From an uncultured bacterium (GTDB taxonomy: Bacteria > Cyanobacteriota > Vampirovibrionia > Gastranaerophilales > Gastranaerophilaceae), in contig CACWHC010000019.1 of the NCBI GenBank assembly GCA_902760645.1, positions 1 through 33,610 of the forward strand: a stretch of DNA of 33,610 nt. Direction: 5' to 3'. Shown here in pieces: positions 42 through 29,515 of this stretch. The translations under genes and the position numbers were made by a program. Numbering within the stretch: position 1 is the stretch's first letter; every line of letters starts with the position of its first letter. The notes under the pieces were generated by a model. The model saw nothing but the letters and a program-made list of their open reading frames with translations. It did no database searches and was not told where the DNA came from.

Positions 42-75
42 TTAAAAGGGACTAGTTTATACTAGTCCCTTTTAA
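42..75 (-). terminator. Perfect terminator-like hairpin next to the outermost tRNA-Arg tail copy
   Basis: A 15-bp perfect inverted repeat (42-56 with 61-75) encloses the 4-nt loop TTAT. Read on the minus strand it follows the tRNA-Arg tail copy at 76-93, just as the hairpin at 461-496 follows the real tRNA-Arg. On the minus strand the stem ends in TTAA rather than a long U run, so terminator activity is likely but not certain. Confidence 0.5.
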
Positions 76-93
76 TTTACGCCCGGCGCGATT
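76..93 (-). repeat. Outer copy of the tRNA-Arg 3' end (18 bp)
   Basis: The 18 bp tttacgcccggcgcgatt are identical to 496-513, which cover the acceptor 3' strand, the 3' half of the T-stem and part of the T-loop of the intact tRNA-Arg plus two flanking bases. No other part of a tRNA is present. The copy ends in the T-loop, where the tRNA would continue with CGAAC but the sequence changes to GTCTTGG. It is the third copy of this tail within 440 bp. Confidence 0.9.
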
Positions 94-264
94 GTCTTGG
101 ATTATTGGCAGTTCAACCGTTTACATTCGTTTTGTTTTGTTTGCACAAAACAGTCACTCATTACAACGGTTTCACTAGGACGGCGTTCCGTTCACTGACG
201 TTCACTCCAGCCTTGCCAAAATCCGCCGAACGCACAAATGCGGTTCTCAACGCTGACAAACATA
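94..264. repeat. tRNA-tail-associated structured element, copy A
   Basis: This spacer lies between two copies of the tRNA-Arg tail. It starts with GTCTTGGATTATT and has GCGGTTCTCAAC near its other end (239-254), matching the GGTTCTCATC of copies B and D. Internal complementarity includes AACCGTT (115-121) with AACGGTT (165-171), and a CGCA/TGCG hairpin just before GGTTCTCA. It encodes nothing convincing: the reading frame through it is an incidental opening. Its period with the flanking tail copy is 225 bp. Confidence 0.7.
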
Positions 265-303
265 AAATTAGAGGAGATAGGATTAACCTATCTCCTCTAA
301 TTT
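265..303 (-). terminator. Perfect hairpin next to the middle tRNA-Arg tail copy
   Basis: A 17-bp perfect stem (265-281 with 287-303) has the 5-nt loop ATTAA. On the minus strand it directly follows the duplicated tRNA tail and overlaps its last bases. Its sequence differs from the hairpins at 42-75 and 461-496, but all three are perfect and sit at the same place relative to a tRNA tail. It looks like an intrinsic terminator carried with the repeat unit. Confidence 0.55.
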
Positions 304-318
304 ACGCCCGGCGCGATT
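301..318 (-). repeat. Middle copy of the tRNA-Arg 3' end (18 bp)
   Basis: This is an exact copy of 496-513 and 76-93. It again stops at the same T-loop position, GATT, and is followed by GTCTTGAC instead of CGAAC. It defines a 195-bp period with the real tRNA-Arg end. Confidence 0.9.
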
Positions 319-460
319 GTCTTGACCTGTTCGCATTAAACGTGTCTGCGTGTTTTGCTTCAAAGAACTTACGTTCTTTTCGCAAAAGCACTCCGCTCAC
401 AGGTCGCTCGAACACGCAAGTGCTTACGCACTTTGCGGTTCTCATCTGGCTCAAACCCAA
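319..460. repeat. tRNA-tail-associated structured element, copy B
   Basis: The first 31 bases (319-349) match copy D near tRNA-Ser (28926-28956) at 30 positions, and 388-413 matches 29004-29029 at 24 of 26. An outer stem pairs GACCTGT (324-330) with ACAGGTC (399-405). A nested hairpin pairs AAAGAAC with GTTCTTT, and a third pairs GCAAGTGC with GCACTTTGC around the loop TTAC. It ends in GCGGTTCTCATC. Copy D keeps the same stems with different bases, which points to a conserved RNA or DNA structure rather than a protein. Confidence 0.75.
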
Positions 461-496
461 ATAAAAAGAGATAGGTTTATACCTATCTCTTTTTAT
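461..496 (-). terminator. Intrinsic terminator of the tRNA-Arg transcript
   Basis: A 16-bp perfect stem (461-476 with 481-496) with the 4-nt loop TTAT lies immediately after the tRNA-Arg 3' end on the minus strand. The downstream arm there is AGAGATAGG-like and runs into a U-rich stretch, as expected for a Rho-independent terminator. Confidence 0.75.
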
Positions 497-497
497 T

Positions 498-571
498 TAC
501 GCCCGGCGCGATTCGAACGCGCGACCCTCTGCTTAGAAGGCAGATGCTCTATCCAGCTGAGCTACGGACGC
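498..571 (-). tRNA. tRNA-Arg (anticodon TCT)
   Basis: On the minus strand the 74-nt gene folds as a complete cloverleaf. The acceptor is GCGTCCG with CGGGCGT (one G-U at the end and one inside), the D-stem is GCTC/GAGC, the anticodon stem is TCTGC/GCAGA around the loop CTTCTAA, and the T-stem is GCGCG/CGCGC around TTCGAAT. The discriminator is A, and CCA is not encoded. The anticodon TCT reads AGA/AGG. The gene lies downstream of a T-arm-less tRNA remnant on the same strand and is followed by a terminator. Its last 18 bp are repeated twice further downstream. Confidence 0.95.
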
Positions 572-583
572 ATATCTGTTGTT

Positions 584-716
584 GTCTTGGATTTGCTCCA
601 CGCTCACAGAGTTTCGTTTTCGGCACTTCGTGCCTGTCAACTCAATCTGTTCGCTATCCGGCATGAATGCCGTCCGCAAATCCGCTATTTAATTGTCAAT
701 TTTAAGCTTTTTCTGT
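584..716. repeat. tRNA-tail-associated structured element, copy C
   Basis: This 133-bp spacer lies between tRNA-Arg and the truncated tRNA. It starts with GTCTTGGATT, like copy A. An outer stem pairs GGATTTGC (589-596) with GCAAATCC (676-683), and internal hairpins are GGCAC/GTGCC and GGCAT/ATGCC. Unlike the other copies, no recognisable tRNA tail precedes it, and the tRNA on its other side has lost the T-arm. It seems to be a rearranged member of the same family. Confidence 0.6.
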
Positions 717-771
717 CGCCCTGACCTACCGCTTATAAGGCGGTTGCTCTATCCAGCTGAGCTACCAGGGC
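717..771 (-). pseudogene. T-arm-less tRNA remnant with anticodon TAT (Ile-like)
   Basis: On the minus strand the sequence has a 5' acceptor GCCCTGG, a good D-arm (GCTC/GAGC), and an anticodon arm ACCGC/GCGGT around the loop CTTATAA. It then goes from AGGT directly into CAGGGC, which can pair with the 5' GCCCTG. The whole T-arm, roughly 18 nt, is missing, leaving 55 nt. Anticodon TAT would read the Ile codon AUA. Most bacteria read AUA with a lysidine-modified CAT tRNA, so a TAT anticodon is uncommon; it could also be one base changed from a CAT loop. The T-arm loss suggests a non-functional remnant. A functional T-armless tRNA is not known for bacteria. Confidence 0.7.
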
Positions 772-13228: not shown

Positions 13229-13699
13229 ATGGAAGATTTACTTAGAGATAATATAATCAAATTAAAACTGGAAAACAAAAATCAGGCAGTATACGTTGCA
13301 AATATTGATGTAGAGAATATAGATGTGCTTCTTGACAATATCGCAAAAGAACTTTATTCCGGCGCGGATATAATAATTTTTGATGCAAATTTAATGAGCG
13401 ATGACAGAATGTGCATAGAGGTTGCTAATAAAATAAAACTTTTATGCGGTGAATTTGATGCATCATTTTTTATAAAAGGCAGAGCCGATATTGCTTATAT
13501 TGTTAGGTCAGACGGAATTTTGCTTGATAATACGGATGTTTATCCTGAATATGCCCATGAAATATCAGGTCATAACTCTATTTTGGGTTTTGTTGGCGAA
13601 CCTGATGTAAATAATGATTTGGTTGATTTTATAATTGATGATAAAGTGTTATTTTGTGTTAAAAATAAAATAAAAATACCTGTAAAAGAACTAAAATAG
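13229..13699 (+). CDS. ThiE/TenI-like domain protein, reduced
   Basis: The 156-residue protein looks like a shortened thiamine-phosphate-synthase fold. The best match is FIKGRADIAYIVRSDGILLDNTDVYPEYAHE, laid out like the ThiE motif with a strand, RADIA, DG and L followed by D. The motif then continues SILGFVGEPDVN in place of the usual IG-S segment. The start MEDLLRDNIIKLKL lacks the N-terminal barrel strands, and the protein is about 50 residues shorter than ThiE. Key pyrophosphate-binding residues are not obvious. It may have lost catalysis or have another role. The next gene starts at the base after its stop, so the two are almost certainly co-transcribed. Confidence 0.6.
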   Translation: MEDLLRDNIIKLKLENKNQAVYVANIDVENIDVLLDNIAKELYSGADIIIFDANLMSDDRMCIEVANKIKLLCGEFDASFFIKGRADIAYIVRSDGILLDNTDVYPEYAHEISGHNSILGFVGEPDVNNDLVDFIIDDKVLFCVKNKIKIPVKELK

Positions 13700-28401: not shown

Positions 28402-28887
28402 TACATAATATATGTTACAAACGCTATTTATCCAATTTTGTCATCCCGAACTTGTTTCGGGATCTGACCCATGATAAAATCTGATTATGGTCTACACAAA
28501 ACAATACTATGTATATATAATTACAAACTATCACCAAACAACATTTTATATTGGAATAACTAATAATTTAGAACAAAGAATATGGCAACATAAAAATAAA
28601 ACCTCTGATGGTTTTTCTTCTAAGTATAATTTAAACCGCTTAGTATATTATGAATGTTTTGATGATGTTAATTACGCAATAGCAAGGGAAAAACAGTTGA
28701 AAAACTGGCATAAACAATGGAAATTAAACCTCATAAGAGATATGAATCCGGATTTTAAGGATTTAAGTACTGATATTGGTTTAGAACCTGAAACAAAAGA
28801 AATCACATAACTCCACTGTGGTCAGATCCCGAAACAAGTTCGGGATGACAAAATTGGATAAATAGCGTTTGTAACATATATTATGTA
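28402..28887. mobile_element. GIY-YIG element with perfect 68-bp inverted repeats
   Basis: Positions 28402-28469 and 28820-28887 are perfect inverted repeats of 68 bp, compared base by base. They frame a 324-bp GIY-YIG gene, 486 bp in all. Each arm contains a smaller palindrome, ATCCCGAACTTGTTTCGGGAT-like, the REP-like core. No clear target duplication flanks the element. The perfect identity argues for a recent insertion or active repair. It is inserted between the operon terminator and the tRNA-Ser locus. Confidence 0.9.
28487..28810 (+). CDS. Small GIY-YIG nuclease-like protein
   Basis: The 107-residue protein is a single GIY-YIG domain: YYVYIITN (the GIY strand, Tyr8-Tyr10), FYIGITNN (the YIG strand, 21-23), then Arg31, His35 and the catalytic Glu68 in AREKQLKNW. 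It belongs to the short UPF0213/YhbQ-like family. Related short proteins occur next to CATCCCGAAC-like palindromes in many bacteria (my memory of the family, not checked here). It has no visible ribosome site and lies entirely between the inverted repeats. Its likely role is to cleave DNA at or near the repeats, which is inference. A DNA-repair role is an alternative. Confidence 0.85.
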   Translation: MVYTKQYYVYIITNYHQTTFYIGITNNLEQRIWQHKNKTSDGFSSKYNLNRLVYYECFDDVNYAIAREKQLKNWHKQWKLNLIRDMNPDFKDLSTDIGLEPETKEIT

Positions 28888-28903
28888 ACATTAATAATAT
28901 TGT

Positions 28904-28925
28904 AAAAAACGGAGAAGAAGGGATT
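28904..28925 (-). repeat. Copy of the tRNA-Ser 3' end (22 bp)
   Basis: These 22 bp, of which the first 6 are A, are identical to 29087-29108: the acceptor 3' strand and T-arm 3' half of the tRNA-Ser plus flanking A. The copy ends at GGGATT, where the tRNA continues with CGAAC, and switches to GTCTTGAC. The break point is the same as at tRNA-Arg. The period is 183 bp. Confidence 0.92.
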
Positions 28926-29086
28926 GTCTTGACTTGTTCGCATTAAACGTGTCTGCAGTTTTTCTTTTTCGGAAATTATATTTCCTGCAAAGAAAAAGCT
29001 TCCGCACTCTGCTCACAAGTCGCTCGAACCTGACAAGGCTTCCGCCTTGTGGTTCTCATCCCATTTGTGCAGCCGATTTAAACATG
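28926..29086. repeat. tRNA-tail-associated structured element, copy D
   Basis: This spacer lies between the tRNA-Ser tail copies. It has the same opening 31 bases as copy B (30 identical) and the same GCACTCxGCTCACxxGTCGC block at 29004. Stem GACTTGT (28931-28937) with ACAAGTC (29015-29021) differs from copy B by a compensatory C-G to T-A change. The hairpin ACAAGGC/GCCTTGT and the inner pair GGAAAT/ATTTCC replace different sequences at the same places in copy B. It ends GTGGTTCTCATCC. Position, stems and ends are conserved, so the folded form is likely what is selected. Confidence 0.78.
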
Positions 29087-29092
29087 AAAAAA

Positions 29093-29179
29093 CGGAGAAG
29101 AAGGGATTCGAACCCTTGGTGGAGTTTCCCCCACAACGACTTTCGAGGTCGTCACCTTAAACCGCTCGGACACTTCTCC
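29093..29179 (-). tRNA. tRNA-Ser (anticodon CGA)
   Basis: The minus-strand gene of 87 nt has the acceptor GGAGAAG with CTTCTCC and discriminator G. Its D-arm and anticodon stem ACGAC/GTCGT surround the loop CTCGAAA (anticodon CGA, reading UCG). The long variable arm typical of Ser is present (GTGGGGGAAACTCCAC-like), and the T-arm is intact. CCA is not encoded. A run of six T follows on the minus strand, a weak terminator. Its 3' end is duplicated at 28904-28925. Confidence 0.96.
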
Positions 29180-29320
29180 TTTTTCTTTATTTTATCACAA
29201 ATTATTTTATACTGCTATCTGAAATTATTTATTCTTTCCCCCACTTGCATTATATTGTGGTTTGTTGTATTATATCTCTGCAGACACTTGTAACAAGCTA
29301 TAAAGGTGGTGAAAATATAA

Positions 29321-29494
29321 ATGGCAGAAGTTAAAGTTGGCGAAAACGAAAGTATCGAAGTCGCTTTAAGACGTTTCAAAAAGAAAATCCAAAAAGCAGG
29401 CATTCTTTCTGAAGTTAAAAAACGTGAAAGATACGAAAAGCCTAGCGTTAAAAGAAAACGTAAATCTGAAGCTGCTCGTAAGAGAAAAGTGTAA
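29321..29494 (+). CDS. rpsU: 30S ribosomal protein bS21
   Basis: This is a 57-residue ribosomal protein of the small subunit that helps mRNA binding at initiation. It begins [19 protein letters not shown], then [22 protein letters not shown], and ends in the basic tail [14 protein letters not shown], all typical of bS21. It was found by eye, being below the usual size limits. An AAAGGTGGTG site lies about 10 bases before the ATG, and a terminator follows at 29516-29549. It is a single-gene unit between tRNA-Ser and the membrane protein. Confidence 0.95.
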
Positions 29495-29515
29495 GGTTTT
29501 ACTTATAAATTCATT

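What the first reader, a model, noticed from the sequence alone, without database searches (positions are those of the whole stretch)
28904..29108. The same element at tRNA-Ser, with compensatory base changes
At tRNA-Ser a 22-bp copy of its own tail is followed by an element that matches the tRNA-Arg element at 30 of 31 bases at its start and 24 of 26 further on, 28.6 kb away. The tail sequence differs between loci but the element does not, so the element moves and takes the tRNA tail of its new site. The outer stem has a C-G pair in one copy and U-A in the other, and two inner hairpins keep pairing with different bases. That is evidence of a selected fold, though from two copies only.
Basis: partly seen in the sequence, partly recalled or inferred. 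Interest (0 to 1): 0.88.

Follow-up and report, generated by a model that had tools for sequence, protein, structure and literature searches.

The report
tRNA-hopping hairpins matched to hosts
Behind about half of this gut bacterium's tRNA genes sits a short non-coding mobile element that carries a copy of that tRNA's own tail and a complement of its T-arm; E. coli K-12 shows the same arrangement behind three kinds of tRNA gene, so an old one-locus oddity (the tyrT "RtT" repeat) looks like one case of a general, testable kind of mobile element.

Summary
On the minus strand, tRNA-Ser(CGA) is followed by a structured element and a 22-bp copy of its own tail. A covariance model finds about 20 copies in this genome and matches in 35 of 57 relatives (Gastranaerophilales), behind about 29 tRNA species and tmRNA. 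Pairing on an unfitted 57-copy alignment is decisive (covariation 0.556 against 0.147 shuffled). Each unit holds a reverse complement of the host T-arm with central GA, a second copy of the T-arm's 5' half, a hairpin core inserted in that T-loop, and the host's tail. Cores move between tRNAs and species; the host-derived parts follow the tRNA. The core avoids G-T pairs (1.1% against 7.9% in tRNA stems) and prefers three-base loops, which suggests selection as folded single-stranded DNA. The T-arm rule, applied to seven E. coli K-12 tRNA genes, found units at tyrV/tyrT (the known RtT repeats), proK and serX, each with its own guide and tail, and none at proL, leuX or serT. So this is a mobile, multi-tRNA variant of the RtT kind. 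The mobilising enzyme is unknown; Y1 and IS110 transposases and reverse transcriptase are absent from this genome.

The parts
29093..29179 (-). host tRNA-Ser(CGA)
   Evidence: ARAGORN and Rfam tRNA
29087..29108 (-). tail of tRNA-Ser with its T run (first copy of the 22-bp direct repeat)
29051..29062 (-). guide GGGATGAGAACC: reverse complement of the host T-arm with central GA
29026..29055 (-). hairpin 1 (GAACC - inner hairpin - CA bulge - GGTTC)
29024..29030 (-). T5 copy GGTTCGA (second copy of the 5' half of the T-arm)
28931..29021 (-). type I hairpin core (GACTTGT...ACAAGTC), covarying
28904..28925 (-). second copy of the tRNA-Ser tail (core ends AAGAC, then AATCCC...)
497..572 (-). host tRNA-Arg(TCT)
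300..494 (-). unit B at tRNA-Arg: terminator 463-494, guide 435-448, type I core, tail copy 300-318
75..299 (-). unit A at tRNA-Arg: terminator, guide region 240-251, T5 copy, type III core starting GCGGATTTTGG (211-226), tail copy 75-93
584..686 (-). type II core C (AGCGGATTTGCGGACGG...GAGCGTGGAGCAAATCCAAGAC) between a T-arm-less tRNA and tRNA-Arg; no tail copy recognised

Best explanation
A short, non-coding, non-autonomous mobile element of the RtT kind, specific for the T-arm of tRNA and tmRNA genes. Shown by sequence: the tRNA stays whole and is followed by a unit of host-derived parts (reverse complement of the T-arm, second copy of its 5' half, copy of its tail) with a hairpin core lodged in the loop of the second T-arm copy; cores are exchanged between tRNA species, the host-derived parts are not. 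Inferred: the tRNA-sense strand, when single-stranded (replication, uptake), folds into a junction of hairpins that recreates a T-arm-like site; a site-specific recombinase acting in trans joins this folded site to the T-loop of a tRNA gene. Because tail and guide are remade for every host, the target must be copied in the process. The enzyme is not identified; a tyrosine recombinase is the likeliest class, and the two Xer-like ones are the only intact candidates of that class in this genome.
For: About 20 copies here and matches in 35 of 57 relatives at about 29 tRNA species and tmRNA. Covariation. Guide, T3 and T5 matches to the own host above every shuffle. Nearest cores at other tRNAs; same core with different host parts; upstream part clusters by tRNA, 21/55 against 6%, core does not, 6/55 against 4%. 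G-T depletion and triloops. Bare tRNA genes in close relatives. The T-arm rule learned here finds units at proK and serX of E. coli K-12.
Against: No mobilising enzyme found; plain Campbell-type integration would bring the donor's tail, so an unproven copying step is needed. Hairpin 1 alone shows no G-T depletion (9.3% by the greedy search). The guide does not fit every host perfectly. No before/after pair at one orthologous locus was obtained. Single-stranded DNA folding rests on statistics only.
Confidence: 0.5

Rival explanations
1. RNA-level device: the unit is transcribed by read-through of the tRNA and the folded RNA acts as a small RNA, or as a decoy for tRNA-maturation enzymes; the T-arm complement pairs with the tRNA precursor.
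For: E. coli RtT is annotated as an sRNA processed from the tyrT transcript and as cis-reg in Rfam. The sense strand also folds better with RNA parameters (53 of 64). Units always lie in tRNA sense in the copies examined.
Against: A terminator-like hairpin stands between tRNA and element in most units. G-T pairs are rare in the core and loops are mostly three bases, unlike tRNA stems and terminators of the same loci. An RNA role does not by itself explain movement between tRNAs.
Confidence: 0.2
2. No dedicated enzyme: replication or repair errors copy and invert the T-arm and tail at each tRNA (snap-back copying at the T-arm palindrome), and cores spread by short-homology recombination.
For: Guide, T5 copy and tail are all copies of the local tRNA. 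Units are often tandem and exact. No resident Y1, IS110 or reverse transcriptase.
Against: Fixed layout, fixed orientation and fixed insertion point in two distant phyla; cores conserved by compensatory change, which needs selection.
Confidence: 0.2
3. Remains of tRNA-integrating phages or islands: attachment sites left by deletion of larger elements.
For: tRNA 3' ends are classic attachment sites and larger inserts sit in or beside many units.
Against: The same roughly 180-bp unit recurs at about 29 tRNA species without integrase genes beside it, apart from a Xer-type gene in loci L126 and L311, and is absent from the phage and plasmid collections.
Confidence: 0.07
4. Ordinary recombination between the two loci of the window.
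For: Two shared blocks of 30/31 and 24/26 bases.
Against: Copies at many loci and species, with flanks fitted to each host.
Confidence: 0.02

Closest known systems
RtT RNA / tyrT 178-bp repeats of E. coli (Rfam RF00391; rttR, tpr)
   Same: Tandem units behind tRNA genes, each with a copy of the tRNA tail, a reverse complement of the T-arm with central GA, a T5 copy, and a hairpin core inserted in the T-loop copy.
   Different: Core sequences do not match: Rfam RtT does not detect the Gastranaerophilales units tested and model R1 does not detect RtT. Here the family is far more abundant, reaches tmRNA and about 29 tRNA species and shows exchange of cores between them.
Integron attC sites and cassettes
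   Same: Imperfect palindromes recombined as folded single-stranded DNA, little sequence but strong structure conservation (PMC8946536); mostly three-base loops and unpaired bulges here.
   Different: No IntI found here, units usually without a gene, and the anchor is a tRNA gene instead of attI.
REP sequences and RAYT / IS200-IS605 elements
   Same: Short hairpins with a guide-like stretch, mobile as single-stranded DNA (own knowledge).
   Different: Y1 transposase is absent from this genome and most of the genus; the target is the T-loop and the complement is 10-13 bases long.
IS110 bridge-RNA systems
   Same: Target choice by a rewritable complement to both sides of a dinucleotide (own knowledge).
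   Different: No IS110 transposase in the genus.
Casposons
   Same: Insertion at the 3' part of tRNA genes with a target duplication of similar length (own knowledge).
   Different: No genes and no long terminal inverted repeats seen; Cas1 was not searched.

Membership tests
RtT kind, by architecture | copy of the host tRNA tail at the end of each unit | tested here: met
RtT kind, by architecture | reverse complement of the host T-arm (central GA) before the T5 copy | tested here: met
   statistics; E. coli 16/17
RtT kind, by architecture | structured core inserted in the T-loop of the second T-arm copy | tested here: met
Rfam RF00391 RtT | covariance model score over the gathering cut-off of 45 bits | tested here: not met
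   no RtT match in the window or in loci L130, L141, L162; E. coli controls match
integron attC / cassette | integron integrase IntI in the genome | tested here: inconclusive
   only two intact tyrosine recombinases in the own genome, Xer-like by length and sequence, not scanned for the IntI-specific patch
integron attC / cassette | folded single strand as substrate | tested here: inconclusive
   G-T depletion and triloops agree; no experiment
REP-RAYT / IS200-IS605 | Y1 transposase in trans | tested here: not met
   PF01797 absent from the own genome and from G012 with 25 copies
IS110 bridge-RNA element | IS110 transposase | tested here: not met
   PF01548 absent from all 13 genus genomes searched
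reverse-transcribed element | reverse transcriptase in the genome | tested here: not met
   PF00078 absent from the own genome
casposon | Cas1 integrase and terminal inverted repeats | not tested
   no Cas1 search was run

The most novel reading that the evidence does not exclude
A widespread class of mobile single-stranded-DNA hairpin cassettes that use a rewritable complement of the tRNA T-arm to enter any tRNA or tmRNA gene without killing it, rebuilding tail and guide from each new host; RtT in E. coli is one lineage of it.
Probability: 0.35. Interest if true: 0.93.

Novelty: new variant of a known kind. Interest (0 to 1): 0.83.

Why it matters
The tyrT repeats of E. coli have been a curiosity of one locus. 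If the T-arm rule is general, they are one case of a class of mobile elements that live behind tRNA genes in unrelated bacteria, keep the host tRNA intact, and fit themselves to each target by base complementarity. Units at proK and serX of K-12 allow a direct test in a laboratory strain, and the case would link tRNA genes, folded single-stranded DNA and site-specific recombination.

Tried and rejected
Rfam on the element at permissive thresholds: tRNA and chance matches only. A hammerhead-like reading (GAUGA before a stem): rejected by inspection, since other conserved core bases are missing and the Y of GAY follows the host T-loop. Bridge RNA, Y1 and reverse-transcriptase mechanisms: genes absent from this genome. 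Phage or plasmid carriage: no match; the one viral contig looks like a host unit beside a prophage. Empty-site comparison at orthologous loci (rpsU for Ser, der for Gln) failed because tRNA and neighbour are no longer syntenic; bare tRNA genes in general were seen instead. A dedicated integrase beside the units: a Xer-type gene lies in loci L126 and L311, otherwise none was found near an element. Literature in the open library: nothing found on this arrangement.

Full report
Observation. On the minus strand of the window, tRNA-Ser(CGA) (29093-29179) is followed by an element and a second copy of its last 16 bases plus six T (28904-28925). The two blocks shared with the tRNA-Arg(TCT) element are as described (30/31 and 24/26) and the outer stem is compensated. 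The tRNA-Arg array holds two units with different cores, B (type I) and A (type III), each with its own terminator-like hairpin and tail copy. Rfam finds only tRNA here.

How many. The own genome (1.96 Mb, 29 contigs; the window is contig C19) has further copies behind tRNA-His, Met, Lys, Arg(ACG), Ala, Gln, Ser(GCT), Ser(GGA) and others; of 42 tRNA genes about 20, by my reading of the flanks, have an intact or truncated unit. A covariance model from 12 copies finds 20-21 copies here and matches in 35 of 57 relatives, up to 25 per genome. A pattern scan of named genomes hits mostly Candidatus Gastranaerophilales from gut and rumen. Of 97 copies read with flanks, 70 have a tRNA or tmRNA gene on the same strand within 400 bases upstream, first units usually 53-95 bases away, with tail copies of 13-14/14 in most; many of the rest are at contig starts or truncated.

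Fold. On an unfitted MAFFT alignment of 57 copies RNAalifold gives 20 pairs; 96.8% of cells pair, 15 pairs have changes on both sides, covariation 0.556 against 0.147 +/- 0.011 shuffled and at most 0.094 when slid. One-sided (wobble) changes are nearly missing. Over 93 distinct copies, leaving out one invariant G-T column pair, the core has 25 G-T among 2287 paired cells (1.1%); tRNA stems from the fetched loci have 280 of 3561 (7.9%); terminators 10.6% by a greedy search that gives 4.4% for the core's apical hairpins and 9.3% for hairpin 1. Three-base loops dominate (P2 45/56, hairpin 1 38/61, terminators 29/182), with GAA the commonest. d(GNA) triloops are a known stable DNA motif (PMC5815330). 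Tandem G-A mismatches are conserved in the basal stem. These signs favour folding of the tRNA-sense strand as single-stranded DNA; the inference rests on the core, since hairpin 1 shows no G-T depletion.

Anatomy. Reading in tRNA sense: tail, terminator (in most units), GGGAY-GA-GAACC, an inner hairpin with a CA bulge, GGTTCGA, core, AAGAC, tail. GGGAY-GA-GAACC is the reverse complement of the host T-arm (GGTTC-GA-RTCCC) with the central dinucleotide left as GA. Matches to the own host exceed every shuffle: T5 side 6.56/8 against 5.65 (max 5.91 of 500), T3 side 3.69/5 against 2.67 (max 3.0 of 2000), T5 copy 3.19/5 against 2.23 (max 2.47 of 500). At the two outer T-stem positions the guide follows the host more than the T5 copy does (0.45 and 0.48 against 0.23 and 0.38), so internal pairing alone does not explain it.

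Modules and movement. The nearest relative of a core is usually at another tRNA in another genome. When similar cores sit at two tRNAs, homology covers mainly TTCGAGCG-core-AAGAC, while guide, T5 copy and tail fit each host. The 62 bases before the T5 copy cluster by tRNA (21/55 against 6% shuffled), cores do not (6/55 against 4%). At tRNA-Val(GAC) the same hairpin 1 carries a type II core in the own genome and a type I core in G012; at tRNA-Ser(CGA) itself G003 has nearly the same hairpin 1 with a different, truncated core. Two close relatives have mostly bare tRNA genes. So the element moves and its host-derived parts are remade.

Which enzyme. This genome has no Y1 or IS110 transposase and no reverse transcriptase and only two intact tyrosine recombinases, Xer-like by length and sequence (no family scan was run on them). 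No match in the phage and plasmid collections. The mobiliser remains open.

Comparison with the known. E. coli K-12 tyrV/tyrT repeats (RtT, rttR) have tail copies every 178 bases, a guide GAAGGAT-GA-GAAGCTTC and a T5 copy AAGGTTCGA. Applying the T-arm rule to further K-12 tRNA genes gave 16/17 with tail copies at proK (TGAGGATGAGAACCTCC) and serX (GGGGGATGAGAAGCCCC, three tail copies 181 bases apart), and nothing above the shuffled maximum at proL, leuX and serT. serX has a core different from tyrT. Rfam RtT covers all three E. coli loci, serX barely (46.3 against 45 bits), but not the Gastranaerophilales loci tested, and model R1 does not find RtT. I file the window element as a variant of the RtT kind by architecture, not as a member of the Rfam family.

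Shown and inferred. Shown: distribution, fold, host match, modularity, agreement with E. coli. Inferred: folding as single-stranded DNA, a recombinase in trans, and a copying step that rebuilds guide and tail. The main difficulty: simple site-specific integration would bring the donor's tail into the new tRNA; the data require that the target is copied.

Noticed in passing
717-771 (-): A tRNA-like gene (loop reads CTTATAA) that lacks its T-arm: the variable loop runs straight into the acceptor strand. It lies just upstream of the type II core C.
   Followed up: partly
L107, L116, L117, L121, L126, L153 (e.g. L116:4940-4990): Larger inserts with a shared right end (GTGTTAAATTACA) cut into these elements at varied positions; they look like islands that use the elements as landing sites.
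   Followed up: partly
L045 (tRNA-Pro CGG), L046 (tRNA-Glu CTC), L040 (tRNA-Pro TGG), L341 (tRNA-Gly TCC), L372 (tRNA-Val GAC): Other small elements, unlike types I to III, also end in a copy of the local tRNA tail, so several families use this niche.
   Followed up: no
L118:1672-6768 (genome G025): Copies of the core spread away from tRNA genes, several per contig.
   Followed up: no
28487-29500 and L326: tRNA-Ser beside rpsU and tRNA-Gln beside der are found only in the own genome; relatives have rpsU or der without the tRNA, so these tRNA loci are rearrangement points.
   Followed up: partly
1-93: The contig begins inside the tRNA-Arg array; other contigs also start or end in such arrays, which suggests that assembly broke on longer arrays.
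   Followed up: no
L382 (E. coli K-12 proK, downstream of 13617 on the minus strand): In the second proK unit the core slot after TTCGACTCGAC is taken by a GTAGGCCTGATAAGACGCG repeat of the REP/BIME kind; Rfam calls naRNA4 at 13276-13355.
   Followed up: no
genomes G001, G003, G005-G008, G010-G014, G044: Very short tyrosine recombinases of about 170-220 aa are common in these genomes but absent from the own genome.
   Followed up: no
L199:6092-7252: A prophage-like contig with a reverse-transcriptase gene lies next to a unit with a tRNA-Val(TAC) tail.
   Followed up: partly
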